Source of the DNA: Amblyomma americanum | Taxonomy: Eukaryota; Arthropoda; Arachnida; Ixodida; Ixodidae | Length of the DNA: 64,000 bases | Assembly: GCF_052857255.1 (NCBI RefSeq) | Contig: NC_135498.1 | Span: forward strand, 114,431,634-114,495,633 | Direction of reading: 5' to 3' | In this document: positions 27,130-63,170 of the stretch, piece after piece | Position numbering within the stretch: the stretch's first letter is position 1 | How the letters are laid out: the number at the start of each line of letters is the position of its first letter | The notes under the pieces: model-generated | Database searches by the model: none | The model's input: only the letters and a program-made list of their open reading frames with translations | Told to the model about the DNA's origin: nothing | Made by a program: the position numbers and the translations under genes

Positions 27130-27187
27130 GCCATGGAGGATTTGCTCTACTCTTCGCTTTTGTGCTTCATGCTCCTGGCATCGCATG
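27130..27187 (+). CDS. Evasin-like secreted protein, exon 1 (signal peptide)
   Basis: The exon is flanked by tttgcag on the left and gtgagt on the right. The start codon at 27133 sits in an ideal context (GCCATGG). The 55 coding bases end in phase 1. They encode Met-Glu-Asp followed by a hydrophobic run rich in Leu, Phe and Met, typical of a signal peptide, with cleavage probably just after the junction with exon 2. It is read together with the exons at 29582, 32130, 48729 and 56195, whose phases fit in order. The product should be secreted, in ticks most often into saliva. A chance ATG after an AG is the alternative; the chain of five phase-compatible exons argues against it. Confidence 0.75.
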
Positions 27188-29581
27188 GTGAGTTTATTAC
27201 GAATGAATACTTCAGAAGTTTACTCTAGCTAGACAGCTACTCTGCAAAACGAAGATGGAGAATATGTACAATCTCCCTCTTCTAAAACATGTAGCTGAAG
27301 CATGTGAAATTCTTATTCAATAGCATTGCCAGTAACCCATCATCCATTCTCAAAAACACTCTCTGAAATCAAAGAGAAACAGGAGCAGAAGACATCAAAA
27401 GTCCTAAATTTCAAAAAATGCAGATGAGAGTACACGACAAAGTAGAGAAATTAATACGAAGAAGGACAAAAGAGACCACGTGGCCGAACGACACTTGCAA
27501 CTTGTTCCCAGCAAAACAAAATAACATCATTGCCTCATGACTCTCAGGAGTTTTTTTTTAATCACAATTCAGGATTTCACACTAACACCTCGATCTTGTA
27601 ACATTCCTACCACTGCCGCCCATCTCCCGTGCTAGCTTCTATTTGTACTAGTCGCCTGAATCCTTTCCCCGAATGAATTCGATTTTCTATTCCCGGTTGA
27701 ATCCGGTTTTCGTCACTGTCTCCAGGAGAAAGCTAGAAGCAGACGCCTTATGAGCGATGATTTGGTGGTCGCTGAATGAGTCATTAACACGTCGAGCAGT
27801 CTGTCTCTCACAGTGGCTGCCGCGGCTTCTGTGCACTTAATAGGCCGCCTGTCTGCTGCGGCCAGGTTACCTGAGGCATCTGCCTGCTTAAGTGGCAAAG
27901 CATTTCCCAGACATGAAATCACGTTGGGACGGGAGTGAAAATTATGAGAAGAAAGGAGGACAACCTAGTGGAGGAGAAGGAGGGAAAATGGAGAGAATAA
28001 AAGTGGTTCTGGGACTGTATTTGCTTCACATATCCCTCCACATGCATAAAAGTTGTCTGTGACTAAACAAATGCACGCCTTGTGATTTTCGCTCCAAACA
28101 CATCATGAAAGATGTGCAAGACCATTCGAGGTGCTGAAATAAAGAGAGGCAGATGAAAGCTGCACAACACATTTGCGAGTATATACCCTGAAGGGACAGT
28201 TTGTTCGATCGCACTAAACTGCGTTAACCACCAACGCAGGCTCAATCATAACATTGCGCCCAGCCGATGAAAATCATTTAGTTTGCGGAAGAACTTGCTT
28301 TTTGTATCTTATCTACTATTTATTTATTTTTACTACGGCCAGATGGCCATCGATAGCATTCTTTCATTACCTCCACCTCAACAAATTGAAAATCAGCAGC
28401 GCCTCTATCCTTATGTGACATATCGATGGCAGGGGCTTTCACGACGGAGCCGTTTTCGGCGCTGCTGGAGGCAAGTTCGTGCGGGCACAGACGTTTACGT
28501 AGTTGGAGATGGTGAGGGCTGGCTCAAATCTATTGTAAAGGGCTTGCTTGTAAACTGAAGTGAAAATTTTGTTCTCTCATCTTATGCTCCCGTAATACAC
28601 CATGTTATGAGTCTAAAATATTTGGCTGTGATTGGGAAAGTCTGCTCCTATAAATGTGGTCTTCACTGACTTTTCTTTGTTACTTCATTATGTACCTGAT
28701 TATGTACTTCAAGATTAGTAAAATTCGCTCTGACGCATGAGTTGAATTTTTTTTTTCAAATTGACTTTTGCACTAATTTTTATATAGGCTTATGCAACCC
28801 AGTTGACCGTGACATAAAGCCTCGCGACATTAAGGTAATTAAGGTCACGGCGGGTGCGTTAATGTCACTTGACCGTGAGATAAACGCACCCACCGGTAAA
28901 GACGACGGCGACGAGAAAGCTAGGGGCGGGCGCCTAACAGCTATCGCTGTAAAAATAGAGATCCTGTTAAGTCTTTCAAAGTATATAGAGAACTTTTCGC
29001 CTCATAATTATGGTACCGAACCCGACGATTAATTGAATAATTACATTAATTGATAAATACACAAAACTGCGTTATTTACGGTTCTATATTGCTATCAGCT
29101 AAGCTTTGTGCCTTGAAACTAAACGGAAAAGGTGTCCCTTGTAGCGACTAGCATGCGTACAAGCGTCACAGCACACAGTTACTGCACTTCCTATCGAGAA
29201 ACCTTGCAAGGAGAACTGGGCATGAACAGACGGATGGCGTTAATGCACAGGCGTCGTAGCACATACTCACACCTCGTTCTTTTGAGATAATTGCGCAATT
29301 AATGTCGGGTTGCTGTTGCTGTGGTGGTTTCGTATCGCGCTGAAGTAGAGTTGCGAAACGACAAAGGCAGAAATAGCTGAAAAAAAATGTGACCAATGCT
29401 GAAAGTGCTTTCGTTCTTGACATCTAGAAAAGAGAAAATTGATGCACCGTTTGTGTCGATTAGCGGCGCCCAGCATATAACAGCACTGTAGTGTGCGTAG
29501 TGCACCATTGCCATTCTTGGCCTGATGTCACCAACCTTTTTACTTACTGGAAAAAAATATTTTTGTTATTCTTGCATATAG
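27188..29581 (+). other. Intron 1 of evasin-like gene
   Basis: A GTGAGT donor and ATATAG acceptor, phase 1. It contains a strong hairpin at 28848-28890 but no recognised coding element. The frame at 28283-28558 is unrecognised. Confidence 0.65.
28848..28890. repeat. Imperfect 17-bp inverted repeat in a tick-type repeat fragment
   Basis: GGGTGCGTTAATGTCAC and GTGAGATAAACGCACCC face each other across ttgacc, with two mismatches. Neighbouring 'gttgaccgtgacataaagc' echoes the same words. It is probably the end region of a small DNA element. Confidence 0.7.
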
Positions 29582-29617
29582 GTTTTGCCCTTCCTGAGGA
29601 CAGCGATGAAGGAACTG
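29582..29617 (+). CDS. Evasin-like secreted protein, exon 2
   Basis: A 36-base exon between a T-rich tract ending atatag and the donor gtgagt; phase 1 at both ends, so it adds exactly 12 residues. It encodes the end of the signal region (FALP) and then a run of acidic residues (EDSDEGT). Its small size and symmetrical phase mean it could be skipped without breaking the frame. Confidence 0.75.
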
Positions 29618-32129: not shown

Positions 32130-32168
32130 ATTCTGACGACTATGACAGTTACGACAATGAGCCTGAAA
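32130..32168 (+). CDS. Evasin-like secreted protein, exon 3 (acidic tyrosine motif)
   Basis: A 39-base exon between tttttacacag and gtaagt, phase 1 at both ends, adding 13 residues: DSDDYDSYDNEPE. Both tyrosines lie in strongly acidic surroundings, the usual context for tyrosine sulfation. Several evasins are known to have acidic, sulfatable N-terminal tails that improve chemokine binding, so this exon probably encodes that tail. Like exon 2 it can be skipped in frame. The similarity to sulfated tails of other tick saliva proteins leaves some room for another family, which exons 4-5 reduce. Confidence 0.78.
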
Positions 32169-33254
32169 GTAAGTGCAGTGCATCACATCGGGTAGGTCAA
32201 CCAGAATGGTTGCTTCAAAGGTGACGACGCATAGCATGCTCTCTACAGTTACTCTATTTCTTGTCGCAGATTTCTCAACTTCTAAAAGAACTAAATTTTG
32301 GTACAAAAACAAACGTTACAGTTGCAAGTAGAAATGCCTAGAAATCGAATTCCAACACTACGATAAGCAGAGAACACTTGCGACGCCCCCGCAATTACAG
32401 TGTGCATATCGACTGTGCCTTTTTTACTGTTCCAAGCGCTAAACTACAAAGTTTTTCAGGTGCATTGCATAATAAAATAAAATATTAAAATCGTAGTGGT
32501 CATTTCAAGCGCAGTGTGCCATTCTGAGAACAGCTGCCGCGGAAAATTAATGTACAGGGTTGGTGAAAAATTTCCAGACCACAGGCTTTGCTTTTAAAGC
32601 GGGATCAGATGTGAAAATGGTATTCTCCTAAGCACTGTAGACATTTTGGCATACCCTGCAGAAGCAGAAAACTTCCCCTGAGCACAAACGACTCAGTGAC
32701 GCGAATTATTCAACTTTCGCTTAAGCGCGAAAGGGCACAAATTTCATTTTTTTTATCTTTCTCTGTTTTCTGTATTAAAGGTAAAGATTTTGCCTTCTGA
32801 TCGCTAAAGTTATAGTTTATGTGCCGAAAGTCGTTGATAAAATCCTTATTTTGGAAGACAAGGTCCAAGTACGTCTTCGTAGATGCGGAGACGGAGGGGT
32901 AGCGAGTTGCACCATCAATAGCTCTTGAGCATTGGTGAGGAGGTCGGCATTGCTGCTTGAATGTGCAGGTGTCCTACACGAAGCATGGAGCACGACCTGT
33001 ACTTCAGTAATGAATTATGAGGTAGGCACAGTGTTTATGTTGAGCTACATAACCTTTATTAAATGAAGCGTAAAGAAAGGCTCCTTCACGGGAGGGGGGC
33101 ATTAGGGACATAGACATCATATATGGAGGTCAATGCCTGCCTCACGTGCAAACTGCATATACGTTATCGCCACGATATCTGGACAGGCCTACTGAAAGAA
33201 TGGCGCGGTGTGCTCGTTCCCTGCACCTTTCACCTACATCGGCATGTTAGGAAG

Positions 33255-33330
33255 CAGTGATGGCGTAGAAGTAGAGCATCCGCCTCGCGTGCAAGAGGTC
33301 CGGGCTTGGAATCCGAGTGGCGCGCAGTTC
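33255..33330 (+). repeat. tRNA-like SINE head immediately upstream of the RTE LINE
   Basis: The stretch gatggcgtagaagtagagcatccgcctcgcgtgcaagaggtccgggcttggaatccgagtgg folds in the order of a tRNA. It has an A-box-like TGGCGTAGAAGTAGAGC, an anticodon-arm-like CCTC...GAGG, and a B-box-like GGGCTTGGAATCC. It is a pseudogene, because the B box is altered and no acceptor stem is evident. The sequence runs on without a visible break toward the LINE. Confidence 0.65.
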
Positions 33331-33539
33331 TCCAAAGGATTGAAGGAAGAAAAACTGCGCGTGTTGATAGAACTGCACAGCAAGGCCTGGGGTGCAGCCT
33401 GAGCTCGGTGACCAGAACCAAAAACACACTCTCTCAACAGAACAGAATTTGGCCACCCTGGTGCAGTACTTGGTCACAGCGTTCTAAGATCAAATCAATT
33501 AATCCTCGGCCCTCAGTTGTTAGCGGCTGCGGAGCAACT

Positions 33540-36330
33540 GGCCATGGCGGTGGTCAGACCTGTGACGCGGCGCAGGGTGCTAAGAATTTCTGGCTCCGCA
33601 CAGGCCGCCACTGGAATCTCAACCTGGCAACGTTCAACGCTAGAACCTTATCTAGTGAGGCTAGCCTAGCAGTGCTGTTCGAGGAACTAGCGGGCATTAA
33701 ATGGGATGTCATAGGGCTCAGTTTATTTAGGAGGACAGGTAGGGCGTATACAGTACTAAACGATGGGCAGATACTGTTCCATCGCGGACTAGCGTATAGA
33801 CGACAACTAGGTGTGGGATTCCTCATTAATCAGTATTTAGCTGCCAACGCAGAAGAATATTGTATAAAATTAACGAGAGAGTGGCAGCTATCGCAATAGG
33901 GCTGAATAGGAGGTACAAGCTGAAGGTGCTGCATGCCCACGCATCTACATCCAGCCATGATGACCAGACTGTTGAAAGTTTCTATGAATACGCGGAATTG
34001 GCAATGAACAAAGTAAAATCACACTACACTGTACTGATGGGCGGCATCAATGCGAAGGTGGGCAAGGAGCAGGCTGGCGCCCCGGTGGTAGGCGATTATG
34101 GGATCGGTTCTAAGAATAGCCGGGGAGGGTTATTAGTAGAGCTCGCAGACAGAAATAATTTACGGATCATGAATGCGTTCTTCTGCAAACGATAGAACAG
34201 GAATTGGACCTGGAGGAGCCTCAGTGGTGAGGCTAAAAATGAAATCGGCTTCATACTATGCGCTCAACCTGGCATCGTTCAGGATATCGACGTCCTCTAA
34301 AAGGTGTGCTGTAGCGACCACAAAATGGTAAGGTCTCGAAATAGCTTAGACTTGAGGATGGAATGGAAGAAGCAATTAATGAAGAAATGCATTAACGAGT
34401 TAACGATAAGAGGGAAAATAGAGGAATTCAAGATATCTCTGCAGAACAGAGGTTCAGCCTTAATTGAGGAAGACGATGTTGATGTCCATACAATGAACGA
34501 TCATCTCACAGCTATTATTATGGAGTGCGCAGTAGAAGTAGGCAGTAGGACGGTTCGACAGGATACCGGCAAGCTATCTCAGGAGGCGAAATATCTGATT
34601 AAGGAACGCCAAAGCATGAGGGTGTCTAACCCTACAGACAGGAATAAACTAGCAGAGCTATCGAAGTTATGATATAAGCGCAAGGATTGCTTAAATAAGG
34701 AAGCTAAATATGAAGAAGACCGAGCATGCTCTATAGAACACAGGTTGCCTGAAAGCGGTTAACGGGAAACAAGGCATTGGTAAGAATGAGATGTATGCGT
34801 TAAGAGACAAAGAGAGCAATGTCATTAGCAATATGGATAAGATAGTTAAAGTTGCCGAAGGATTATACACAAATCTATACAGTAGAGAAAGTAATCAGAG
34901 CGTTAATGAGAGACAGTAACGCACAGCAATGCGTCATGCCGCTAGTAACGAAAGTGGAAGCAAAGAAAGCCTTAACAGCAATACAGAGGGGAAAAGCACC
35001 TGGTGACAATCAGGTAACAGCAGTTCTGTTGATGGACGGAGGGGAGATTGTGATAGAAAAACTAGCCACCCTGTACACGCAATGCCTTATGACCTCGGCC
35101 TTACCAGAACCTTGGCAGACCGCAAAAATTATCGTAATTCTTAAGAAAGGAGACGCCAAGGAGTTGACAAATTACAGACCGACCAGCTTACTGTCCGCTG
35201 CCTACGTGATATTTATTAAGGTAATCGCTAATAGTCAGGACAACCTTACACTTTAATAAACCAATTGATCAGGCAGGCTTTCATAAAGGATATTCAACAA
35301 TAGGTCATATTCGCACAATCAGTCAGGTGATAGAGAAATGTGCAGAATATAAACCGCTCTATATAGCCGTCATTGATTACGAGAAAGCATTAGACTCAGT
35401 GGAAGCCTCAGCTGTCATAGCTGCTTTGCGGAATCGGGGTGTAGAAGAGCCTTATGTGAAAATACTGGAAGATATGTACAGAAACTGCACAGCTACTATT
35501 GTCCTCCTTAAAATGAGCAATAAAATTCAAATAAAGATGGCCATTAGGCAAGGAGATACGATCTCGCCAATGCTATTCACCGCCTGCTTATAGGAGGTAT
35601 TCCGAGGCCTGAATTAGGAAGAGTTGGGGATAAGAGTTAATGGCAAATACCTAAATAAGCTGCGATTTACTGATGAGATTGCCTTCCTGAGTCACTCACG
35701 AGATGAATTGCAGATCATGATAAATGATTTAGACAGCGATAGCAAAACGGTGGGTCTAAAAATTAACATGCAGAAAACCAAAAGTGACTGCTGATCCGGA
35801 TCATGCACGGAAAAATGTTAGAAGGGTAAGAATGGGGTGGAGCGCATATGGCACGTTCACTCAGATCATGAGTATCAGTTTGTCAATATCCCCCAAGAAA
35901 AAAGTGCACAACAGCTGTATCTTGCCGGTACTCACCTATGGGCCAGAAACGTGGAGGCTAACGAAAAGGGTTCAGCTTAAGTTAAGGACTACGCAGTGAG
36001 CCATGGAAATAGAAATGATAGGGGTAGCGTTAAGAGACCTGAAATGGGCAGAGTGGGTGAGGGCTATAACGCGGGTATATGACATTATAGTCGAAATCAA
36101 GAGGAAGAAATGGGATTGGGCGGGGCATGTGATGCGAAGGCAAGACAACCTGCTGGTCCTTAAGGGTAACAGAATGGATTCCAAGAGAAGGGAAGCGTAG
36201 TAGGGGGAGGCAGAAGATTAGGTGTGCGGATGAGATTATGAAATTCGCAGGTATAGGTTGGTCGCAGCTGGCAAAGGACCGGGTTAATTTTAGCGACATG
36301 GGAGAGGCCTTTGCCCTGGAGTGGGTGTAG
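33540..36330 (+). pseudogene. RTE-type LINE (endonuclease plus reverse transcriptase), inactive
   Basis: Plus-strand pieces in changing frames give an RTE-like protein. The apurinic endonuclease starts near 33605 (WNLNLATFNARTL) and continues to about 34195. The RT domain runs from about 34900 (GKAPGDNQVTAVLL) through LTNYRPTSLLSA (35160), QAGF (35270), IAVIDYEKALDSVE (35365) and IRQGDTISPMLF (35547) to FTDEIAFL (about 35670). The C-terminal block KKWDWAGHVMRR lies near 36100. The endonuclease motif GDFNA reads GGINA, so a catalytic Asp is lost. The RT motif usually FADD reads FTDE. Several stops and frame changes are present. No zinc-finger ORF1 precedes it, as usual for RTE. Confidence 0.9.
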
Positions 36331-36334
36331 TCAG

Positions 36335-36371
36335 GCTGATGATGATGATTATGATGATGATGATGATGAAG
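36335..36371 (+). repeat. (TGA)n tail of the RTE LINE
   Basis: A run of tga/gat triplets directly follows the RTE stop region. Short-unit tails of this kind are typical of RTE elements and mark the 3' end of the insertion. Confidence 0.85.
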
Positions 36372-36506
36372 TCTCGTATAGACACAGAACGGAGGAGGTT
36401 CTCATAAATGTGGCAGTGTAGAAAGCTGAGTGTGTGCACCCTCTAATGCCATACGTTGATTGATGCGATGCAGAGCGTCTGTGGTTCGTGCAGACTCCGC
36501 ATGAAA

Positions 36507-36573
36507 TTTAAGAAACTAATTTTAAGAGACTAATTTTAAGACTAAATTTAAGAGACTAATTTAAGAAACTGGC
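36507..36573. repeat. Minisatellite, unit about 14 bp, 4-5 copies
   Basis: Units of the form tttaagagactaat/tttaagaaactaat repeat in tandem with small changes. Confidence 0.8.
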
Positions 36574-39172
36574 TCGGCAGCGATCGGCCACGTTCTGCCA
36601 GAGCTTTATGCTGCACTTTGTGTAAAGCGATGCGGGCTAGTGCTCGTGGTCCAGGTAGTCAACGCCGCCGCTACGTAATGCCAAGGAATGAGCTCGTAAC
36701 GCTAAATATTGTAACGTTAACCACCGATTAGGTGAATAATAATAGTGCACTAGTTCCCGCTACATCTTTAATTAGCACTATTCGTATCAACTAACAAGAA
36801 TTTCTCACGCGAGATGATTTTTAAATGCTACCTTCACTTGTAACGGCAGCACGACAAAATGTAAACGAGCACTTCTGTCGAGAGTGCTAACCTTTGACCG
36901 AAACATGTTTGTTTTCACGCACGGTTCTCTTCTGGGACCATCCATTGAGGAAACGTGTGAAACGTACTCTGTTACAGAATTCAAGATTGCTGGCTTAATG
37001 CTGGTCACTTGTATATACTCCCGGAAATCCCTTCTGGCATAGTTATTACAGTAACGAGGATTTCATGAACTATTGATAGAAATGTCACTTCCCCAGTTCG
37101 AGAATGACAGCTTTTATATGTCGGCTGAGCACTTATTTTCTTGCGCTGTAGCTTGCTGCAATATGGTGGGCGTTTTCAGTATGTCGTTGATTTGATTTCT
37201 ACCATCTTTGCGCCCTTCATCTTGATCAATGCACCTTAATGATGGAAAATGGTGGGAGGAAGATATTGGCTTAGTGTTAAGAGCAGCCAACTATTATAGC
37301 TGAGTGCTCTCAAGAAGAGAGATAACCTGGTTTGGACGGATCTGGCGTGTTTTTCTATATGAGCCTTTGAGCCATACTCGAAATTCCTGTCTACTAGATT
37401 GGGTTAAGGACCTATTCTTTCAGCACGAAGGGGATCCACGGTGGCTTAGCTTAGTGGTATCGCTGATTGCCCTCAATGCGCGATTGTCACTAGAGCGTTT
37501 GTTTTTCGCACGGGTGCCTTCTTGATTTCATTACCTGATGAGGTGTGCAATGTGTCGTACTTAGGCATTTTTGTTGCATTCTTCGTCAAGTTTCTTATAT
37601 TCGGTGCACTTAGCCTCGCTTTTCCATGCAGTTGTTGTTGATTTTCACACAAGGCAGACAAGGGTTTTAGCTAAAGTCTATATTTTGTTATTCGCGCTGG
37701 TGGACTGAAGGTAGCGGCTCATGCCTGCTGGGGACAATAAGCCGTCGTTCCCACAGCAGGGTTCACGCAACCTTCGCCGTAGCAAACCAAAGGTTTTGTT
37801 TACAACTGTGCGCTGTCTACCTGCTGAACTTTATTCGCAGAGAAAAGCGAAGACGCCCCTTATGATATGTCTTGCTTTTCGAAGGCTTTCCAACGTATTC
37901 TGGTAACACTCGAAAATGGTATGCGTTGTCGGAAGGCACTGATTTCTACGTGTTCAACCTTATTGGATGTAAAAAAATAAGCTTTCTCGGATGAGATTTT
38001 TTTCACGTTCTTGGTGTAGATGTTTACTCGCAAACCTATTGCATGCGAAATATCATTCGTATGAGCGACTTTGCTGACCTCAACAGGTGCCATGCGTTGA
38101 CCAAGATCGCTTGTGATTTTGGAGCCCTTCCAACAAATAGAGTTAACTCCACTACTAGCCGCAAGACAAGCACGGGTGTTACTATTTCGAGCCACGCGTT
38201 CATATTCCCTACCTTTGTATTGTGAGATTTGCTATCCGAGTCCACTTATTTGTCTCCAAGTGCTGAATAGAATAAGTTTGAGGAAAGGTTTTACAAGAAA
38301 AATAGGCATGGGACAACGGAGTGTAGCGGCCGCCTACATTCTCGAATGAATTCATTTAAATTGGTGCCATAATCACAGGGTCATAAATCAAGAACAGGCA
38401 TATTTCTCTTGCAGCCTACATTTTTAGCATCACCGGCAAACCGCATATGCATCCTGTAGTTGGAGAAGAGGACATTACTTCCGAAACACGACTGCATATC
38501 TGGCAATTAATGCGGAGGTAGAGGCAGAACAAATCTGTCAGCTAGACGAGAGCCCTCGGCTAAGAATAGCTGTGTCCAACTTTCAATGATCGTTTAATTT
38601 CTACTTTTGTGGTCAATGACGGTGTTCGAAACATGAGGTGCCTTATTAGACCGCAATGAACAACCAGAATGCTACGGCACTCCACTTAAGTATCATCATG
38701 AACGCTAGCCGTTAACCACGTTTGAACAGCGCGAAGAAAAGTGTACTAAGCAAGAAACACGTACACAACGAAGCGCTGTTTTTTGTTTGTCCTCGTTTCT
38801 TCGCGCCATTCAAATATGCTAAACGTTCGCCAACTCGCCCACTTTTCTATTCTACTGCAAACCGTTACCTGGCAACATTGGCGTGGGAACACTCTATTGG
38901 CGCTATTTTGAGCATTTTTTTTTGTGTGTGACACTAAATGTGCCACAGGGCGTAAAATTCGATGTCTATAACGAACGTTACGCACAAGCCTTCATAAAAG
39001 TATGAAGCCCTGTTATTTGTAAAAAGTTGCATAAACTTCGAGCGTAATTGTTTTTCGTCAACCACAAGTGGAAATTCGAGTCATTATTGGAAGACAAGCC
39101 TGCCTCTAGAATAACACGAGCGTGCACCTGAGAAGTTCTTAAACATGTCCACAGTAGGTGGTGACAGGTGTG
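36574..39172. other. No recognised feature
   Basis: A possible SINE head scrap lies near 37433-37480 (tccacggtggcttagcttagtggtatcgctgattgccctcaatgcgc) and an imperfect hairpin at 37722-37760 (cctgctgggga..ttcccacagcagg). The remainder is unassigned. Confidence 0.4.
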
Positions 39173-42100
39173 TCAGAACCGGGTGCTTCGCAGTAAGGGC
39201 ACTTTTCCGGCGCAGGAACCTTCGCACTTCGCCACTGGTTCTGAACTACAGGCGTAAGATCCACTCCGACCCGCAGCCACCTCAGAGAGACCGCATCTAC
39301 GCGTGATAGGTTTAAAGGAAGGGGGCAGGTACACAGGAGAATCGGAGCACGTGTAAGCTGCCTGAGGGAGGCTTATGAAGTTAAATGCGCCAGAAGTGAG
39401 TGGATCTGATGGCAGAGGCAGGTGAAGTTGTGGGACCTCTGTTAAACGAGATTGGATGCCAGCTGCGATGTTTTCGACATCTCTCCTAGCTTGAACCCAG
39501 TGAATGCGTAGAGGAACCATGTAGGATAGACGAGCAGTATGTATGGCCTGGGAAACCCGACGGGTTGCACGGACTTTCTTTAGATGCTTCAGAACTCCTT
39601 CTGAATCAGTAAATAGGTGCGCCTGGTTATAAGGAAGGTCGGCAGGTAAAGCGTCTGTGGCATTTAAAATCACAGTTCGAAGGCAATAGGAGATGAAGTG
39701 TCAGTACAGTAGGTTTGGCGGCTGTAGAGGTGTGGCTGCGTTGGGCTTATAAAATCAGGTGATGCCCCTTTGTGATTGCGGCAACATTTGTGTAACGGAT
39801 ACAGCCATCCTGTTTCGTACAAAAAGCTAATGGCAGAGAACTCTGACTCCTTATGCGAGCAGGCTAGTTTGAAGTAGTGTGAAAGTAGGCCCATAGAGGG
39901 GGTGGAGGCTCGAAGGTGGGACAAAGGGGAACTTTCCGTGCTCTTTTTTTGTCGCTGGATAATTAAATCTGCCAGTGTGTTGAACTGTGTGTACTCCTGA
40001 AGCAGTCAAATAGGAGTTACTCGAGGTAGGGCAGTAATGGCACTCATGGCATTGTGGTTGAGTTCAAGTGTGGACCACTGTCGTTTGTAAGTTGTTGAAA
40101 CTGATCCTGGATAGGAGCCGAGGTTGAAAGACAGCGTGAACAAAGAGACCAGCTGTATCTGAGCGGGCAGCTCAAAGTCAATTGCCTATTCTTCGGATGA
40201 GGCAAAGTGTTCATATGGCACACTTCCACATAGCTGGCAACCAAGCTGTGCCTTTGCCTTAAGCATGAACGTGCAGGCCCAGAACATTTGTAGGTTCCAG
40301 TTTAGGAAGTGGTGCATTGTCAATAGTGAGTACGAACAGAGTGCCTTTGAAAATACGACAGCCAGGTTAAGAAAGAGGCCAGTGTTGGCAAGAAATTTGT
40401 GAAGATGATTGAGAGCATTTTGCAGGGAGTCTTGCTGCACCTGAGCTGAGTGGTTTGTGGTCCGGAGAGTGATTTCATCTGCATATGCTAGAACATGAAC
40501 ATTAAGAAGGGTTGAGAGGCTGTGTTTCAGAGGAATGAATGCGATGTTAGAGTTGGAGCTAAAACAGTACCCTGCGGTACTCCGCGATTATAAATCAAGC
40601 TTCCTGTGGGTGTACCGGTAACGCGGATAGCAAACGTCCGTTGTGAAAGAAAAGCATCGATTGCTCGATAAAGGAACAAGGGCCTGCTAAGTGCTGACAT
40701 AGTGTTGAAAATGGCTGCATGGAGAATGTTATCGTTGACCTTCGTGATATATTTTACTAGGACTGTGCGAACGAGACTGATATGAGGCGCGCGACGTATT
40801 CCGTCGTTGGCAAAGCGGTCAAGACCATCCTCGGATACGTATCCTGGTCGGAAACCAATTTGGGAAAACGAATATTTTCCATAATGGTGCAGCCGCAAGG
40901 AGAGTCGAGTAGCAAGCAGTTTTTAATGCTGCTTACAAATAGTTGGGATAAGAGAAATCGGACGTAGTGCCCCAAGAGTTGTAGGTGATTTGCCGGGCTT
41001 TAGTATTGGAAATACCACTGAATGTTTCCAGTCTAAGAGCATTTCACAGAATGTCCTGATCTCGTTAATAATTCGAAGAAGTGCAGTAAATTCTTCACCG
41101 TTCGGATTCCGGAATAGGACATAAGGTACACTATCATGGCCAGGTGCAGTGCTTGGGCGGATGTTTTCAATGGCAGCTATGAGCTCAGCCATGGTGAACG
41201 GGCATGTGATCTTATCTTCTGCCTCGTATGTTGGACTGATTGGAGCTTGTGCTTGTGGGCAGTTTGGAAAGAAATGAAGGGCCGCTTGCGAAGCGAACTC
41301 ATCTGGAGAAGAACGAAAAGCTAGGACGACGCTTTCGGCTAAGTTTTTGAGGAATGGCTTTCATTCGGTCTCCGAGAGGAATACTGAGGTGAGACCACCA
41401 CTTTGTCCAACGCTTGTACAGAAGGTGTTTAGAATACCGACGGGCGTTAGTGGTTAGCCTATAAAGTTCCGTTTGCGCATTCGGACCTGACAGGACTCTG
41501 AGTGATGTATACGTCCAGTTCCTTGCACCTTGCCCAGAGATTAAGAAGCTGAAGGTCAAGATTTGGTTGATAATTGTCGATAGTGGAAGAAATTGTGTTC
41601 TCTGTTTGGACAAGCGTGGATGTTGAAAGGGCTGAGGCTGAGGTAGGCAGGAGGTATCGGGATGAGGCGGCCATCCGTGCGGAGAGTGTCCCAAGAAGTG
41701 GCAAGAATCTTGCGGCGAATTTAACGTAATTTACATACGGCAAAATCAATTGGAATAGAGAGTGATCACTGCTCCATTTCTCTGCTTCGCAAGACCAGTG
41801 AGGATTGCCGGGACCCACACACCATAAAACGTCCGGCGTCGATGGAGGAGCACGCGGGCGGATATAATTAGAGGAATTGTGGAAACGGCAAAGGAATGGT
41901 CGAAAAACGCGTCGTAAATTTGGTGTCCACGTTGAGATTCGTGAGTGCATCCCCAGGCTGTGTACGGCTCATTAAAATCTCCTCCAACTAATATGGGTAC
42001 ACCTGGGTATGAGATGGGCAGATGATTGAGCTATCAAAAGTTGAATAGAGATGTTTGTGGCCGACCATAAAATGAGGCCAATAGAACTTGAGTGCGCTGC

Positions 42101-42427
42101 GGCTTAGTGCGAATGGCAGTTAATTCTTGACGGTTATTTCACCAATGAGATAGGTCGACGGGAGAATGTGCGGTTGAACAATGAACATATACCGCTGTTT
42201 TTATGAGGAGCAAAAGCTCTGTGGAGATCGAATATTGACAGGTAGTGATATGCACGAAATTCTAAAAGAGGAAGGATCGCATTATGCTCCTGTGAAAGGA
42301 AACCACCGGCAGTGAGTTTGCCTTCTTGAATACGCAGCTTCAGTACAGGGAGCTTACTATTAAGACCACGGTAGTTACATTGTATGATATGGTAAGTAGC
42401 GTTAGTGCATTTTCGCTTGAATAACAT
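39173..42427 (-). pseudogene. I/Jockey-type LINE ORF2: endonuclease, reverse transcriptase, RNase H; inactive
   Basis: Read on the minus strand. The endonuclease begins near 42390 (IIQCNYRGLNSKLPVLKLRI) and ends near 41770 (SSDHSLFQLILP). RT motifs follow: ENIRPSTAPGHDSVPY near 41160, LRPISLIPT near 40960, QIGFRPGY near 40850, VPQGTVLAPTL near 40560, and the catalytic box YADE near 40480 where YADD is usual. An RNase H region follows near 39640-39450 (LFTDSEGVLKHLKK, RIHWVQAR). Stops and frame changes occur throughout. It pairs with the zinc-knuckle ORF1 at 42852-43680, giving one almost complete but dead LINE of about 4.5 kb. Confidence 0.88.
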
Positions 42428-42851
42428 ATAAAATCATCGGAGGCAGTTGCTGCAAAAGGGTAATGAGGAATGACATTAAAAATGCAGCTGCAGGTTTCTA
42501 GTATTGTTAATATTTTGAGTCTGAATGACTGTGCACATTAGCTAAAGGAGGTACTTGAAAAACAGGAGATCGATGCGGACTTTCTAGTAAAAGAGAGCGA
42601 CGTCGGCAAAGCTGGACAGGTTGGCGCCCTATGCCGATCGCGTCATCGATAGCCGAGATCTCATCCGGCATAGAGCAATTTATCGAAGCAAATCAACTTT
42701 TTTTCGACAGGTACGAAGACTTGGCTTCTAAACGAGAGGCATAGAAGGGCGGATACGAGAAGGTTAAGGCAAAGATGCGGGCGGGATTTCAGTACCATCC
42801 TACACTTTCTTTCAACAGAGCAGGAAAACGGCTGGAGATCTTGACTGCAGT

Positions 42852-43680
42852 CTAATTAGTGGCAGCCACCGGATGACGTTTCTTTCGAGGGCATTTAGAA
42901 TAAGTAATGTCGTGGTCGTTTGCCTTACAAAACGGAAACTCGAAGGAGAGAAGACCGCCTGCTGGTGGTTTGGGCAGTGTGTCTTGGGATGCCGAGCACA
43001 ACTTTTTGATGCTGCCTTGTCGCAGGCACCGATAGCAGAAGACTGGTGCAGGACGGAAATGCTTCGGATGGACGATTCGTCCGTTGTAGGAGAATCGAGT
43101 TGGCACTTCTAACGGCCCCACAAGCTGGAGAAGGAATGTGCCTGTGTTGCATAGTCGGTGGACATTAAGCACTGAGTGGGTGTCGGAGAAGAGATTCGTC
43201 ATCAGTTTCTTCTGTGGCGCATAAGGTTCCAGGTATTAAACGAAGCACCGTAGCCAGCCATGTCCAGAGGCCAGGTAGGCCTGCACAAGTGCATAATGCG
43301 ACTCGCTGATTTATAATTTTTAAATATGACAGGTATTTTCAGAATCGCCAAGTGATGCTACTTGGACAGTGTTGGAGTTGGAGGGACGATGCTAAATATA
43401 ACCGCGGTATCCTGAGATGCCTAGTGCATGGTCCATGAGCTCCTACACCGATCTTTAAGGAACTGACGTTATCTCGTATTGCAAGGTAGGCTTAATTTCC
43501 ACTCGGAAAAAGTGGTTGAATTCCAGGAGTGGATATTTCGACGGTGTCGTCTTTGAAGCGGAAGGATCGGTTGGAGTGGCCCATATCTTTTTCGCAGCCG
43601 GTTCAATACTGACATTAGAAACAGGCCTTACAGTATTGAGCAGGAGTGGCATAGGGGTAGGCACAGGAGTAGGCAAGCTG
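42852..43680 (-). pseudogene. Gag-like ORF1 of the adjoining LINE, with zinc knuckles
   Basis: On the minus strand a Pro/Ser-rich N-terminal part (about 43680-43455) is followed, after stops, by a region ending in two degenerate knuckles: CYRCLRQGSIKKLC near 43030 and FCKANDHDITYSKC near 42900. The second still shows the C-x2(4)-H-x4-C spacing loosely. Such ORF1 proteins bind their own RNA. The order ORF1 then ORF2 on the minus strand fits a single element. Confidence 0.75.
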
Positions 43681-45063
43681 GCGGGGGGTAATGAGGACTC
43701 CTCTCGTACAAGTGAAGACGGCTACTTGAGTAGCGATGAAATAACAGGTGCAGGAGGAGCTGAGGTGCTGAGGAGACATCCTTGAGGCGGAAGGGTAAGA
43801 GAAAGAGCAGAGGCATTGATAGCAGGATGTTGTCTTTCCATGCCATAATTACTGTTCATGTCAGTCGGCCAGGTTGAGGTAGGCCTACGTGCCTTACCGA
43901 ATCAACATCGGCATTGCGAAGGCACAGGAAGCGTAGGAGGTAGCGTCGTGAGATCTTCTGGCTTTCTTGGGATCTTCAGGCAGCGTGAGAATGTGACAAT
44001 ATGGCCATAAAAGCAAACACAACACATAAAAGCGAAAAAGTATCCGATGGGTACGGACAGGGTTGGTTGGTAGGCGTCAAAAAAAGGTTTGCACATACCC
44101 ACTACAGGGGAGCGGCCAATGCAGGCGGTGAATCGCTGGAAAAAGGAGCGTTTAGAGGCGGAAATAGTAGTAATACGGTACAGGCTAATAAATGAGACGA
44201 CGCAACGAGGGGGTCCTGTTAACTGGGAGATCTAAGAAGGGACAATGGCTTTATGTGTAAATTCGAATACAAGGCATGTATTATTCAATTTCGCGCTGAC
44301 AGAGCGGGAAGGGAAAAAATCAGAATGGGAGTTGCTGCATTTCTAGAAGGAAATCTTGCACAGCAGAGGACACACTCCCGTTGCTTCGTCCAAGCAAAGA
44401 AGTACCAATGAAAATAACAATCGCAGAGGACACAGACAGACTGAACTGGTGGAAGGGAATTTGTAATAGGCGCTTCCTCAAAGAAGAGAAGCGGCAGCAG
44501 AACAGCAGGTAGTCATCTATTGTCTCCGGTTCGGAAAATACACGGCACAGTCAGGAAATAGCAAGAGCAGATCCATGAAGGTAGAAATTTAGCAGTGGAA
44601 CCCGGCAACGCAAACGCATAAAAGTGACCTCCAGACTTTGCTACTTCAAGGATGCAGAAGATGCTGATATTAGGGAGCTGATTCAAGAGCAGAGGCAGCA
44701 AATTCCTGAAATACTGTGTAGCTGCGAAAGCTCACCCCAGCTGTATATCAATAGGTTGATAGGACAGCAATAATTTGGCACAGAAAGAGGCCCTTGATGA
44801 TGAATCTGCAACCTCATTTCAATGAAAGACCGTGTGCCCCGGTACTAAAATTAATATTACCTAATTAAGATATAGCCCTATTAGGAACTTAAAGAGTCGC
44901 AATTCACGAGACTCAATGGATGAGGATAACGAAGAGCAAATGGACACAGTCTGTCTTGGGAAACAGTAGTTTCTTATTTACGTGAGGCTTAAATTACTGC
45001 TAATAATTCAGCCAAATAAACTGGAGTGAAGTCAGGGAGAAAGAGAGAGAAAGACCAACCCAG
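43681..45063. other. Flank between two minus-strand LINEs
   Basis: 43681-43900 may still be the Pro-rich N-terminus or 5' leader of the LINE ORF1. From 43900 to 45063 no motif is recognised; this is where the 3' end of the next LINE and the 5' end of the first should meet. Confidence 0.4.
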
Positions 45064-47030
45064 TCAAGGAGAAAAAACCCACACCTGCCCTTTAGCGATC
45101 CTGCGACTAATCGCTAGTAATGAGAATATGACAGGAAAGGGCTGCAGCTTTGCATTCGATGGGAAAATGTCAACGAATGCAATCTGGACAGAAGATGAGT
45201 TGTAATATATTTGGTGGACATCTGTGAAATGAATGTTTAAAAGATCAAGGAAGGACTGCAGGAAACATATCTGCGGAGTATGCAAACGCCAATAGGCGGC
45301 ATTAAAAAAGACTGCAGGTTGAATGAGAAATATTCCACTGAAGTTGTGAAAAGGTGAGTCGTGAAATTTTAGAAATGATTTATAACTTACAAGGCGAAAC
45401 ATCGCTGATAAAGATGGGATTTGTGCCTGAATGTGCAGAACAGTATTCGCGATATGTTTTGAAAGCCCCAGACATAGGCGCAACCCCTGATGCCCCAAGA
45501 GCACAACAGAACGAAGTTCACAGGCAGGATCTCCTGAGAATACAACACAGCCGAACTCCAAAATTTGGCGGACATACACTTTATAAATCAGCAGAAGTGT
45601 GTACTTTCTCATGCCTTACCTAGCACTTCAAAGCCTACGCAGGGTGTGAATGGTCCTAATTCTTTTTGCAGACACTTGCGGAATCTGTGCCCGTCAGGAT
45701 AGCGTAGTTTCGTATACTCCGAGATACTTCACCGTGCGAACTTGAGGAATAATTGGATTCCTATATGCCAGGCAGATATTTACAGAATCAGAAACCGGAA
45801 ATACTAACAATGAGCATTCCTTCATATTGAGGAGGAGATTAATTCTTCCTAACCAGGTCTCAGGAACATTGAGACAATTCTGCAAGGTGTAATAAAGAGT
45901 GTGAATGCCACCTGCTGATGCAAAAAAAATGCAATATAGTTGGCGTAAACATATGTTTTCACATTATGAATGCATGAAATTGAGCTTAGAAAGGTATTAC
46001 AAAGAACAGGGGAGAGAACTGGTTTTTGCAGCACTCCTCTTGTCTGTCTGAATCTCCTAGAAGAGGCACCAGTTACGCAGAAATAAAATTCTGTTTTCCA
46101 AGAATGCAGAGGTCCAGGCTACAAAATAGTTTGGGAAATTATGTTCCTGCAATCTGTGTAACGTGTTCGTAGTCTTTACTGACTTAAAAAGAAAACACCA
46201 TTTTGGCAGCAATACAATTCTCTGTGTGTTTAAAGAAAGCAGAGCTCCTAGCTGCCAAATAGTTTGGATTAAGATCCTGTAACCTGTGTAACAGCGTCGA
46301 GTGCTCAACGCTGTCGTGGGCTTTACTGACATCCAAAGTGACAAGAGCCGCAAATGGTTTATTGTTGCAAGCTAGTGTAACACCACTCTCGAGGTCAATA
46401 TGAGCACACCAAATCGAACAGCCCGACCCGAAACAAAGTTCACCTGGTTTCAAGAAAGCATTCGCAGAAATGAAATACATAACATGACTCAGCAGTACCC
46501 TTTCCGCCAATTTCACTACGTTCGATGTTAATGAAATGGAGCGTATTTTGACTTAAGTTGTGCCCCGTGCTTTTCAGGCAATAGACTATTTCAGCAAGAC
46601 ATCACTCATGGGGTATCCAAGGATCTTTATTGGAATGGTTAACTAGAGCCAATAGGTCTTCAAGGGATTCGTTAAACAAAATTTTGATCACAGATGAAGT
46701 GACCTTATCGGGGCCAGGAGCCGCTGGGGATAGGCACAGAACAACGTGCGATAGCACAGGCATAACGGCATAAATAAAATTACTTGAAGTGCATGTGAAT
46801 ATAGGTGGAGAAGGTAGAGCAGATGTAAATCGACGCTATAGGCCACACGCAATGCCCCTTAAGGCCTCGAAAATGTCAGCAGGGGGCCGAACGAGGGATT
46901 TAATGGTGACAACCTGCAGAATCACTTTTCTGCTCCTCATGAAATTAAACAAATCTCGTGTATTTCCTGGTGGTGATGGCGGCCGCCGGTGCACATATTT
47001 CTCGGCAAGCTCAAGCTCCAATTCCACGGC
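45064..47030 (-). pseudogene. Second I/Jockey-type LINE, RT to post-RT region; inactive
   Basis: On the minus strand the order is: an N-terminal RT lead-in (KYVHRRPPSPPGNTRDLFNF) near 47000; SPAAPGPDKVTSSVIKILF near 46720; KLAERVLLSH near 46510; a palm block LDVSKAHDSVEH near 46320; then heavily broken sequence; and finally a 182-codon open stretch (45612-45064) beginning near LLLIYKVYVRQILEFGC, typical of the region after RT in tick LINEs. The RT catalytic Asp-Asp box is not recognisable. It lacks endonuclease and ORF1, so it is 5' truncated. Confidence 0.82.
46055..46330. repeat. Imperfect tandem duplication of about 130 bp inside the LINE RT
   Basis: Two neighbouring stretches share blocks in the same order: 'gcagaaataaaattct' and 'gcagcaatacaattct', 'aaaatagtttggg' and 'caaatagtttgga', 'cctgcaatctgtgtaac' and 'cctgtaacctgtgtaac', 'gtagtctttactgac' and 'gtgggctttactgac'. 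It duplicates codons after the palm block. Confidence 0.75.
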
Positions 47031-47039
47031 AGCACTATC

Positions 47040-47545
47040 CTTATCAAGTGGTTCACCAAACTACGAGATAGCCCATTCGGCGGCGCGAGCGCTCACCTTC
47101 CGCGCCGCCGAGAGTGACCGTTCCCTGTGGTGGTAGGAAACCAAGCACCGAGCGCAGTTATGGGGAAATTACGAAGTGTTACCGCGTAGCCCGACGGACA
47201 ATGCCGCCTCTTCACCCGGCACTCAGTTGGGAGGAGGTAGTAATCCTAAGGCTGATACAGACCGGTTTACTCGTCGCCCTTGCAGTGCTACACGTGCTTC
47301 ACCCATAAGTCTATCCGTGTGATGTGTGCACTGTTTGTGCAGTGGGTCCGGCGGACCAATTGCACATGATGTGGGACTGTGCCAGGTTCCAGACCGAAGC
47401 TACCTCCAGGACATACCCACCCAAACTTCAAAGAGCAGTGCAGTCTTCAGACAGGGGCATTCAACTATGGACCGTCCAGCAGGCCTGGGGGGCAGTCGAA
47501 AAGCACAAGCCTCACGACCCACCACAAACGAGCTGAACTGGGGCA
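47040..47545 (+). pseudogene. LINE 3' fragment: C-terminal cysteine finger of ORF2
   Basis: Plus-strand sequence gives RTMPPLHPALSWEEVVILRL, then a block around CDVCTVCAVGPADQLHMMWDC. These are the spacer and C-x2-C...H...C finger that close ORF2 in many tick I-type LINEs. Then QLWTVQQAWGAVEKHKP and a stop. A stop after VLHP shows it is broken. It lies in the opposite orientation to the LINE at 45064-47030 and abuts it. Confidence 0.8.
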
Positions 47546-48217
47546 GTGCAGAGTAGCGCATAACCGCGGGTCGACGCTTGCCCTCGCAAGTCACATCGTG
47601 AAGACTGGCCGGCGCATCCCCGCCTGTTTCCGGCGTTTACAGAACATCGTAATATTGCACTAAGAGAACTAGAGCTAGTATTGCGGCTCAGCATAGTGGA
47701 TTTGTCATCCTGCAGTTGATCTTGGCCATCGCACATCATGCTCAAGAAAGATCACGGTTGCTGGACGAAAATGTCTAGAAAATTGAAGCGCGCTTCAGAG
47801 AATTAAAAATAAGACTCCATAAATGTACCGTCTATACAAGACTCGCCCTTGTCATAAATCTCCAGGTACCATTTCGCTTTGTGCAGAAATATGAGCATAC
47901 CTGCATAAAGTAAAGAGTGGATGTTCGAAGTTGCAAAATAAGTTTTTAGCTTTCTTTAGGCTTCTGGAGATTATGTGTGAAGAAATAGCTTTTTTTCAAC
48001 GAAAATTTTCATGAAGAGCAAACATCGCCCCCTGGTGATGTGTAACGCATGAGCACAATCCAAATAATGTTTCCATTGGCACAAAGAGACCGTAACAGGA
48101 TTTTCGCATGGGGCAGTTCATCGGGACATAACTCACAACTGCAGAGGAGGTACGTCGTTATGAAAATCTGAGACTCATGCGCTGTGAGTGCATATATTTG
48201 GACAGATATAGGTACCT
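47546..48217. other. No recognised feature
   Basis: May include 3' untranslated sequence of the preceding LINE fragment (to about 47660). Nothing else is supported. Confidence 0.4.
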
Positions 48218-48660
48218 TATTAACGCGTTAAGAAGCCCGTGTCACAAAAAAGCTGGTGTCGCCGTCGCCGTCCGTTGTCGGCGTCGTTGACAGTGAACGA
48301 AAAATTCACAAAAAAAGGCAAGGAATCCGGGTGGCCCACCTAGGCAGCCCACGTAGATGGCTGGTGGGCAAACTAGCTGACGTGATCTTTTGTCGCCATC
48401 GCAACCCGCCCACAAAATTGCCGTGGCGAGAGTCGCACCAGCCCAACCGGTGGCAGCAGCTGGCATCGCAGGAATGTGGTGCATCGCTTATACGCTGCGT
48501 AACTGGCCGGGAATGTTACGACGACTCCCAGGCATCTATGGATATTAAGTATATAAAGACCAATACTAAATATATGGGCATTAAACCATTAACGCTATCA
48601 CGTCATTGCCTTAAAGCGCAGCTTAGGTGTCCGCTATTTTCCGCTTAGGTGACCGTTATT
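48218..48660. mobile_element. MITE-like element, second copy
   Basis: Left end tattaacgcgttaagaagcccgtgtcac; right end cattaacgctatcacgtcattgccttaaagcgcagcttaggtgtccgc. The right end and internal blocks (gtgcatcgcttatacgctgcgtaactggcc) match the element at 24833-25265. The left repeat has lost some bases. It ends about 70 bp before exon 4. Confidence 0.62.
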
Positions 48661-48728
48661 TTTCGTTAATGCCTCAATAATATACAAAGACCCACTTCAA
48701 ATCAGGAATTTGTTTTGTTTTCTTTCAG

Positions 48729-48802
48729 TAACTACACCCACCACACGGCCGACGAAAGCCCCATGTGAAAAAGTTCTGCATGTTAAAGGACCGACAAGCA
48801 TG
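48729..48802 (+). CDS. Evasin-like secreted protein, exon 4 (Thr/Pro linker and first cysteine)
   Basis: The exon follows a strong T-rich tract ending tttcag and is followed by gtagga. It enters in phase 1 and leaves in phase 0 (74 bases). It encodes a Thr/Pro-rich linker (TTPTTRPTKAP, a likely O-glycosylation region), then the first cysteine of the domain and 12 further residues. Joined with the exon at 56195, the gap between the first and second cysteines is 16 residues. This lies within the 14-17 that I recall for class A evasins. The donor gtagga is weaker than those of the other exons. Confidence 0.75.
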
Positions 48803-49943: not shown

Positions 49944-50005
49944 GTTTAAAGCTCCAAGATAATAATAAAATTATTAAATTTAATTATTATCTTGGAGCTT
50001 TAAAC
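49944..50005. repeat. 62-bp near-perfect AT-rich palindrome
   Basis: The arms 49944-49966 and 49983-50005 are exact 23-bp reverse complements (gtttaaagctccaagat... and ...atcttggagctttaaac). After one mismatch the pairing continues inward for five more bases, leaving a tiny loop. Confidence 0.95.
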
Positions 50006-54910: not shown

Positions 54911-55145
54911 TCGCGGTGGCTAAGCGGTTATCGCGCTCGAAAATTGACGCCGAGGACGTGGATTAAGTCCTGGATACGGTGGCCGCATTTCGATGGGGAC
55001 TAAATGCAGAGTGCCCGTGTAGTGTTCGAAGTGAGGTATGTCAGTGCAGGTTAGAGAACCGCTTTTGCCGAAATACTTCCGGAAAGCTCCGCTACAGCGC
55101 CTCTTTCTGTCTCACGTCTTTCTCTCCCTCCTTTCTCACGGCGCG
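54911..55145 (+). repeat. Degenerate tick SINE (long-tailed family)
   Basis: The head gcggtggctaagcggttatcgcgctcg is good. The B-box region is eroded (ggattaagtcctgg). The body has 'atgtcagtgcaggttagagaacc' and a CT-rich stretch ending 'ctccctcctttctcacggcgcg', as in the 9.1- and 62.1-kb copies. Confidence 0.8.
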
Positions 55146-56194
55146 ATCAATGTGCTGATCGTGAAACTAGGCAATGAATGCGCCTTTGATCTTGCCTAAA
55201 GAAGCAATTTTCACTCTGCTGACAACACGAGCCCGCTATGTAACCACCACGTCGGGAGTTAAAGCAAGGAACAGTGGTCGCTCTAAAAAAATGAAACATG
55301 CATGTTATATTGTATTGACTTGTGTCAAGTGGCCATCTGACATCCTTTCTTCTAAAAAATCGCTAACTTGACAGCTTTTTGATGTCACTGGTTCTAACTA
55401 ATTGCATCTGATGTTTTTTTTTCTTTCGTTCCTTAGTTTTGTTCATGAGCATACACTGCATTTTTTTCAATAATATTGACTTCATGGTCAGCGCTCTTAT
55501 ACCTGTCGAAGCGTAAAACCGCTCACTCCGTGCTTTTTTGCTTGTCATCGAAATATACTTACTTCCATCTTCTCACTAACTTTAGCGCCTATATGCCGCG
55601 GCGTAGCCTCTTATAAACATGAATGATACTGAATGAGCGGCGGCCAGTAATACATGATATTTTGATTAGAAGAATTAGCACTTCTCTACCGCGAGTGTGT
55701 GGTGATCGTTATTTCCATTAAAAAGATTACAAATGGGGCAAAAAGTTTACAGCAGGTTTATTTTTAGTGTTTTCTTTTCAATAGAACGTGTATTTGTTCG
55801 CTGACTGTGAACCCAATCCATCTAAGTACTAAATAGACGCCAAAAAGCACAACGGAACATATCTTCATGTAGCATACAAGGTGTAATATTTTTACACTTC
55901 TGTCCCTTTTCAAGTGCGCGGAAGTGAGAATCAGAATTTCCCTTCCTACATTCCTAATGAGCACCCCGTGTTTAAATTCACGCCGGCCACAGGACCACAG
56001 GTGGCTGATGCTGAAAGCACTGCCTACACTTCCTGCATATCCCTTGTGCCTCAACGTATTTCTGGCACCAGTTAAATGAGATTAGTTTTTTAAGACATAT
56101 TAACAGTGGTGCCGCTTACCGAAGGGAGCCCGTCTTACACCTGTAAATTTAACAATGTCCACTTCCGTGACTTATATACCTCTCTTTCTCATAG

Positions 56195-56263
56195 GTACCT
56201 GTTGGATGCAAGAACGACTGTGAAGGGATTTATTACACTGTGCAAAACAATGTGTCTTGCTAC
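56195..56263 (+). CDS. Evasin-like secreted protein, exon 5 (cysteines 2-4)
   Basis: A 69-base exon after tctctttctcatag, with the consensus donor gtatgt; phase 0 at both ends. It encodes 23 residues. They include a Cys-x3-Cys pair (CKNDC) and, 12 residues later, a further cysteine followed by Tyr. Spacing across exons 4 and 5 is C-x16-C-x3-C-x12-C, inside the first half of the class A evasin pattern as I recall it (C-x14-17-C-x3-C-x11-16-C). An N-glycosylation site (Asn-Val-Ser) precedes the last cysteine, and evasins are typically N-glycosylated. The second half (four more cysteines) is not found before 64000, so more exons should lie downstream. Evasins bind host chemokines and damp leukocyte recruitment at the bite; that activity is inferred from family. 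Confidence 0.8.
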
Positions 56264-62413: not shown

Positions 62414-62425
62414 GCTGAGTGAAAA

Positions 62426-63150: not shown

Positions 63151-63170
63151 ACGAATGTCGGGAATATTTG

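What the first reader, a model, noticed from the sequence alone, without database searches (positions are those of the whole stretch)
27130..56263. A split evasin-like gene spread over at least 29 kb
Five small exons with good splice signals fit in phase and encode a signal peptide, an acidic tyrosine-containing tail, a Thr/Pro linker and four cysteines spaced C-x16-C-x3-C-x12-C. This spacing matches the first half of class A evasins as I recall it. The gene would be missed by an ORF search because no exon exceeds 75 bases. The second half of the domain should lie beyond 64000.
Basis: partly seen in the sequence, partly recalled or inferred. Interest (0 to 1): 0.88.

Follow-up and report, generated by a model that had tools for sequence, protein, structure and literature searches.

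The report
Tick class A evasin gene, split
Five tiny exons scattered over 29,000 bases of tick DNA are the first two thirds of a predicted but unnamed gene for an evasin-type saliva protein, a kind known to block the host's inflammation signals; the gene is an ordinary new member of a known family.

Summary
Exon 5 alone has one Pfam match, EVA_Class_A (E = 0.015, below the family cut-off). None of 17 other tested pieces of the window with that cysteine spacing matches it. Searched alone, exon 5 retrieved one public protein, 'uncharacterized protein LOC144118987 [Amblyomma americanum]', 138 residues. Its residues 1-91 agree with the five exons, each compared apart. Residue 44 (Ile) is read as Val in contiguous DNA and as Ile when exon 3 is joined to exon 4.

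The record supplies the missing half. Its cysteine spacing is 16-3-12-18-4-4-8, inside the published class A motif, and it matches PF19429 at 57 bits against a cut-off of 27. Residues 92-138 were not found in the window, so their exons most likely lie beyond 64000.

By sequence this is a class A evasin gene of the eight-cysteine (A1) type, predicted in public data but not named there. CC-chemokine binding is inferred. One point worth testing: exons 2 and 3 are in-frame cassettes, and exon 3 carries both likely sulfation tyrosines.

The parts
27130..27187 (+). Exon 1: 3 bases of 5' untranslated sequence, start codon at 27133, probable signal peptide (residues 1-18 plus first base of codon 19)
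   Evidence: Acceptor rank 6 of 4191, donor GTGAGT rank 12 of 3606; residues 1-19 of public protein P0010 match 100%. The strong acceptor suggests an untranslated exon upstream, not located.
29582..29617 (+). Exon 2: acidic segment, end of codon 19 to first base of codon 31; 36 bases, phase 1 at both ends
   Evidence: Acceptor rank 73 of 4191, donor rank 11 of 3606; residues 19-30 of P0010 identical
32130..32168 (+). Exon 3: acidic segment with two likely sulfation tyrosines (Tyr35, Tyr38); 39 bases, phase 1 at both ends
   Evidence: Acceptor rank 19 of 4191, donor rank 35 of 3606; residues 31-43 identical to P0010; 4 and 5 acidic residues around the two Tyr
48729..48802 (+). Exon 4: Thr/Pro linker and first domain cysteine (Cys56)
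   Evidence: Acceptor rank 4 of 4191, donor rank 120 of 3606; residues 45-68 match P0010. Residue 44 is Ile in the record and Val in contiguous DNA; the split codon with exon 3 gives Ile. Alone it has no Pfam or PDB match up to E 10
56195..56263 (+). Exon 5: Cys73, Cys77, Cys90 of the evasin domain and an N-x-S site
   Evidence: Only Pfam hit up to E 10 is EVA_Class_A, E=0.015; acceptor rank 5 of 4191, weak donor rank 447 of 3606; residues 69-91 identical to P0010, which then departs from the intron reading
32169..48728 (+). Intron 3 (16.6 kb), containing LINE-like reverse-transcriptase fragments
   Evidence: RVT_1 matches at 35225-35593 (+), 40527-40922 (-) and 46184-46552 (-), all below the curated cut-off
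56264..64000 (+). First part of intron 5, by inference; no exon for residues 92-138 found; contains endonuclease coding sequence of a non-LTR element
   Evidence: No full C-x4-C-x4,5-C-x8-C on + strand, no credible next exon, no shared 6-letter word with residues 92-138 in six frames; the two shared 5-letter words lie at 48953 and 19035, before exon 5; endonuclease at 59588-60406

Best explanation
This is the 5' two thirds (91 of 138 codons) of an intact class A evasin gene, of the eight-cysteine A1 type, from the lone star tick Amblyomma americanum or a very near relative. Shown here by sequence: the exon order, the phases, the agreement with a public predicted protein, and the class A domain with its full cysteine pattern in that protein. 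Inferred from the family: exon 1 directs secretion; exons 2-3 give an acidic, probably tyrosine-sulfated N-terminal arm; exon 4 gives a Thr/Pro linker and the first cysteine; exon 5 and exons beyond 64000 complete a four-disulfide domain that binds host CC chemokines and so lowers leukocyte recruitment at the bite.
For: Exons and splice signals in phase; the exon 3-4-5 set found in 0 of 1000 shuffles. Exon 5 alone hits only EVA_Class_A, and 0 of 17 tested same-spacing pieces do. Exon 5 alone retrieves P0010, LOC144118987 [Amblyomma americanum]. Residues 1-91 of P0010 map onto the five exons, with Ile44 explained by the 32168/48729 join. P0010 matches PF19429 with E 2.4e-15, 57 bits against a cut-off of 27. 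Best PDB matches: Evasin-1 E 2.5e-9, P1243 4.9e-7, P974 1.4e-5, P991 8.8e-4. Cys spacing 16-3-12-18-4-4-8 against published 14-17, 3, 11-16, 17-20, 4, 4-5, 8 (PMC8569228, passages). Three N-x-S/T sites and two Tyr in acidic N-terminal surroundings, as the review describes for class A (PMC7322545, passages).
Against: No spliced read was seen. The public protein is probably an automatic prediction from the same species' genome, so it is not independent wet evidence, and the source's support was not visible. The last donor is weak (rank 447 of 3606). The exon 5 hit alone is below the family cut-off, and its PDB hit alone is weak (E 1.4). Exon 4 alone hit nothing. P0010 found no relative but itself in the protein collection, though that search needs shared 5-letter words. 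A single-sequence AlphaFold model is too poor to test the fold (mean pLDDT 43.6). The two residues after the start, before the hydrophobic stretch of exon 1, are acidic, which is unusual for a signal peptide (sequence; the rule is recalled; no predictor run). The assembly beyond 64000 was not read.
Confidence: 0.95

Rival explanations
1. The exons are a chance chain picked out of 64 kb of tick DNA.
For: C-x3-C-x(11,16)-C by itself gives 19 matches in six frames, and the last donor is weak.
Against: 0 of 1000 shuffles give the exon 3-4-5 set; agreement of all five pieces, the exon 3/4 junction residue included, with one public protein that has the class A domain.
Confidence: 0.01
2. It is an evasin pseudogene or a silent copy: exons intact but not expressed or not completed.
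For: No transcript evidence seen here; weak fifth donor; transposon fragments in intron 3.
Against: All five exons open and in phase; the public model is complete with all eight domain cysteines; long introns are reported for the tick Ixodes scapularis (PMC4748124, passages).
Confidence: 0.08
3. It is an evasin-fold protein that does something other than bind CC chemokines, for example acting through its acidic tyrosine arm on coagulation.
For: A weak Pfam match of residues 24-53 to the thrombin inhibitor Madanin family (E 0.053, 14.2 bits, cut-off 25). Family membership does not prove activity.
Against: The match is far below cut-off and lies in a low-complexity acidic stretch; no coagulation inhibitor among the PDB matches up to E 1; characterised A1 members exclusively bind CC chemokines (PMC8569228, passages).
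Confidence: 0.1

Closest known systems
Class A1 evasins (Evasin-1, PDB 3fpr)
   Same: Eight cysteines in the published spacing, N-glycosylation sites, acidic Tyr in the N-terminal region; E 2.5e-9 over residues 70-130
   Different: Distant in sequence; an acidic arm and Thr/Pro linker carried on separate small exons. Evasin-1's own gene structure was not seen.
Class A3 evasins of Amblyomma (EVA-AAM1001, earlier code E1243; the PDB name 'Evasin P1243' is taken, by inference, to be the same)
   Same: Same genus, same core domain (best E 4.9e-7)
   Different: A3 has two further cysteines, in the N-terminal region and fourth strand (PMC10349104, passages). P0010 has only the eight core cysteines after the signal peptide.
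LOC144118987, uncharacterized protein, Amblyomma americanum (P0010)
   Same: Appears to be this very gene: residues 1-91 agree with the five exons
   Different: Public record is not named as an evasin; it adds residues 92-138, which were not found in the window

Membership tests
Class A evasin (A1) | Cys8 motif C-x(14,17)-C-x(3)-C-x(11,16)-C-x(17,20)-C-x(4)-C-x(4,5)-C-x(8)-C | tested here: met
   First half in the window; full 16-3-12-18-4-4-8 in the public protein P0010
Class A evasin (A1) | Match to the family profile PF19429 above its curated cut-off | tested here: met
   P0010: 57 bits, cut-off 27, E 2.4e-15. Exon 5 piece alone: 16.1 bits, below cut-off
Class A evasin (A1) | N-terminal signal peptide | tested here: inconclusive
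   Exon 1 codes a start and a hydrophobic stretch; no signal-peptide predictor available; two acidic residues before the hydrophobic stretch
[quoted passage not shown]
   Tyr35 has 4 and Tyr38 has 5. Tyr6, 81 and 82 have 2 each but lie in the signal stretch or the domain (criterion from PMC7322545, where 21 of 24 sequences have it)
Class A evasin (A1) | Several potential N-glycosylation sites | tested here: met
   N-x-S/T at residues 87, 94, 123 of P0010; only the first lies in the window
Class A evasin (A1) | Two completely conserved glycines | tested here: inconclusive
   Gly112 and Gly117 align with Gly of 3fpr; whether these are the two that the review means was not checked
Class A evasin (A1) | Binding to CC chemokines | not testable with these tools
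   Needs a binding assay
Class A3 evasin | Two extra cysteines (N-terminal region and fourth strand) | tested here: not met
   No Cys between residues 12 and 55; eight Cys after the signal peptide (definition)
Class A2 evasin (Ixodes) | Lacks one pair of the conserved cysteines (the fifth and eighth in the Ixodes sequences of the review) | tested here: not met
   Both present in P0010, Cys109 and Cys128 (definition)
Class B evasin | Cys6 knottin motif C-x(3)-C-x(6,10)-C-... | tested here: not met
   The x(3) pair is followed by x12, outside 6-10

The most novel reading that the evidence does not exclude
The gene is modular. Exon 2 (36 bases) and exon 3 (39 bases) are both phase 1-1 and a multiple of three, and by reading the junction codons every way of leaving one or both out keeps the frame open (GAT or GTA at the join). 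Exon 3 holds both likely sulfation tyrosines. Natural alternative splicing could therefore make evasin forms with and without the sulfated arm from one gene, tuning chemokine binding during feeding. That splicing may diversify tick saliva proteins in general is already in print as an idea lacking data (PMC7517725, passages).
Probability: 0.1. Interest if true: 0.55.

Novelty: new member of a known kind. Interest (0 to 1): 0.3.

Why it matters
It puts a family name and an exon map on a tick gene that public data carry as 'uncharacterized', and it shows how an evasin domain and its acidic arm are divided among very small exons. Such genes are easy to miss by ORF search, so family counts made that way on tick genomes would be too low (inference). 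If the acidic exons are spliced alternatively, ticks would have a simple way to vary chemokine binding. Otherwise it is an ordinary member of a well-studied family.

Tried and rejected
A second-half exon inside the window was sought and not found. No full C-x4-C-x4,5-C-x8-C exists on the + strand; one exists on the - strand at 59836, antisense to the endonuclease ORF. Phase-0 candidates from 56323 to 64000 with C5 in place were listed; the only one that also has C6 in place (63424) has an acceptor score of 1.99, lower than all five claimed acceptors, lies on a 9-base tandem repeat and has no C7 or C8. Residues 92-138 of P0010 share no 6-letter word (0 of 42) and two 5-letter words (2 of 43) with the six frames; these lie at 48953 and 19035, before exon 5, and the reversed sequence shares four, so they are chance.

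The idea that exon 5 runs on to the stop ending at 56296 was rejected: the public protein leaves the genomic reading after Tyr91.

The structure model of P0010 alone was too poor (pLDDT 43.6), so no fold search was run.

Literature searches for evasin gene structure and for splicing of evasins were read as top listings only, apart from the passages cited, and showed nothing on this gene there; a search for the record name and two of its peptides found 0 papers. The Franck 2020 paper on evasin sulfation is not held and was seen only as a reference-list entry.

Controls: of 18 other pieces with the C-x3-C-x(11,16)-C spacing, one (50810, 19 residues) was too short for the profile search and was dropped. 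The 17 tested include two overlapping pairs, so 15 separate places; one piece matched DUF2179 weakly (E 0.091), none matched EVA_Class_A.

Full report
What is there. The five exons were read one by one. Exon 1 starts after a strong acceptor at 27130 with a start codon at 27133; exons 2 to 5 are 29582-29617, 32130-32168, 48729-48802 and 56195-56263. The coding pieces of 55, 36, 39, 74 and 69 bases make 91 codons with phases 1, 1, 1, 0 and 0. With a generic splice matrix recalled from memory, the acceptors rank 6, 73, 19, 4 and 5 of 4191 AG sites and the donors 12, 11, 35, 120 and 447 of 3606 GT sites. Four of the five acceptors are in the top 20; the last donor is weak.

Is it more than chance? 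The cysteine spacing alone is not: 19 matches in the six frames show C-x3-C-x(11,16)-C. The ordered combination is. A set standing for exons 3, 4 and 5 (an acidic Tyr exon, a Thr/Pro-linker exon with one cysteine and a C-x3-C exon, in phase and with the right C1-C2 distance) occurs once on the + strand and 0 times on the - strand. It occurs in 0 of 60 shuffles at each of three thresholds and in 0 of 1000 at the threshold that admits all the claimed sites; in those 1000, a C-x3-C exon alone occurs in 25, a linker exon in 133 and an acidic exon in 1. These thresholds were chosen after the fact, and exons 1 and 2 were not part of the test. With a stricter donor threshold the real set is lost too, because of the fifth donor.

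Profile evidence on pieces. Exon 5 alone (23 residues) has one Pfam match up to E 10: EVA_Class_A, E 0.015, 16.1 bits, profile positions 13-36 of 73, below the family cut-off of 27 bits (repeated). Of 18 other pieces in the window with the same cysteine spacing, 17 were long enough to test (two pairs overlap); none matched EVA_Class_A, and one matched DUF2179 weakly. Exon 4 alone matched nothing. In the PDB, exon 5 alone matched only Evasin-1, weakly (E 1.4, cysteines in register).

The public protein. An endonuclease ORF of a non-LTR element at 59588-60406 showed that the protein collection holds tick proteins: of nine matches, six are named, all from Rhipicephalus, Dermacentor or Hyalomma, and three are unnamed. 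Exon 5 alone, padded with X, then returned a single protein, P0010, 'uncharacterized protein LOC144118987 [Amblyomma americanum]', 138 residues, E 1.2e-10, longest contig 235 Mb. Compared piece by piece, its residues 1-91 agree with the five exons. Contiguous DNA before exon 4 reads Val at residue 44, while the record has Ile; the split codon A|TA across 32168/48729 gives Ile, whereas joining exon 1 or 2 directly to exon 4 would give Val (read), so this junction is specifically supported. After Tyr91 the record departs from the genomic reading, as it must if the intron begins at 56264. The window is therefore from A. americanum or a very close relative (inference).

The missing half. Residues 92-138 of P0010 carry four cysteines. 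The whole domain reads 16-3-12-18-4-4-8, inside the published Cys8 motif (PMC8569228, passages read). P0010 matches PF19429 at 57 bits against a cut-off of 27 and eight distinct evasin sequences in the PDB, with Evasin-1 best at E 2.5e-9 (the ninth listed match, at E 0.09, is PARP9, taken as unrelated). These residues share no 6-letter word with any frame of the window, and the two shared 5-letter words lie before exon 5; no credible second-half exon lies in 56323-64000. The assembly itself could not be read: the genome search did not answer in six tries.

How it works. By family knowledge (PMC7322545; PMC10349104; passages read), class A evasins are secreted in tick saliva. The A1 type has a domain with four disulfides (five in A3) that grips CC chemokines. 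Most have N-terminal tyrosines in acidic surroundings that are likely sulfation sites, and sulfation is reported to raise affinity. P0010 has Tyr35 and Tyr38 in such surroundings and three N-glycosylation sites. Eight cysteines after the signal peptide, and none of the A3 extras, make it A1 in type; A2 and class B are excluded by their definitions. Binding itself is inferred. A weak match of the acidic arm to the Madanin thrombin-inhibitor family (E 0.053, below cut-off) is probably composition.

What is ordinary and what is not. Long introns have been reported for one tick: Ixodes scapularis introns resemble those of vertebrates in length and are about ten times longer than those of the insects and crustacean compared (PMC4748124, passages read). 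The gene is already in public data, unnamed. What may be worth a look is that exons 2 and 3 are each a multiple of three in length and phase 1 at both ends, so leaving out either or both keeps the frame; whether this happens is unknown. P0010 retrieved only itself when searched whole, which may mean a divergent member, but that search needs shared exact 5-letter words.

Surroundings. The window is rich in mobile-element remains: reverse-transcriptase fragments in intron 3, an endonuclease ORF after exon 5, a GIY-YIG ORF near 8 kb, and repeated short elements, three with tRNA-like parts. Of 20 long ORFs scanned against Pfam, five had a match at E 0.001.

Noticed in passing
1507-1745, 9146-9453, 25640-25880, 56475-56720, 62099-62417: Dispersed short repeats, pairwise 69-93% alike; three copies (1671, 25645, 62339) have tRNA-like parts (Rfam tRNA 38.7-50.9 bits). 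They look like a tRNA-derived SINE family.
   Followed up: partly
7661-8620 (-): 319-residue open stretch with a GIY-YIG domain (E 5.5e-5); reads like a Penelope-type retroelement (recalled, not tested).
   Followed up: no
57845-61820 (+): Non-LTR retroelement remains: endonuclease at 59588-60406 (E 3.9e-19), 91% identical over 47% of the query to a Dermacentor albipictus protein that also carries a reverse-transcriptase domain. The extent of the element is a guess from neighbouring open stretches.
   Followed up: partly
63170-63383: Two head-to-tail copies of a 105-base unit (100% identity), next to a partial U5-like match at 63394-63430 (42.9 bits, gathering 40, model 21-57 of 117).
   Followed up: no
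29582-32168: Exons 2 and 3 of the evasin gene are both phase 1-1 and multiples of three, so skipping either or both keeps the frame.
   Followed up: partly
P0010 residues 24-53 (exons 2-4): Weak Pfam match to Inhibitor_I53, the Madanin thrombin inhibitor (E 0.053, below cut-off), in an acidic stretch.
   Followed up: no
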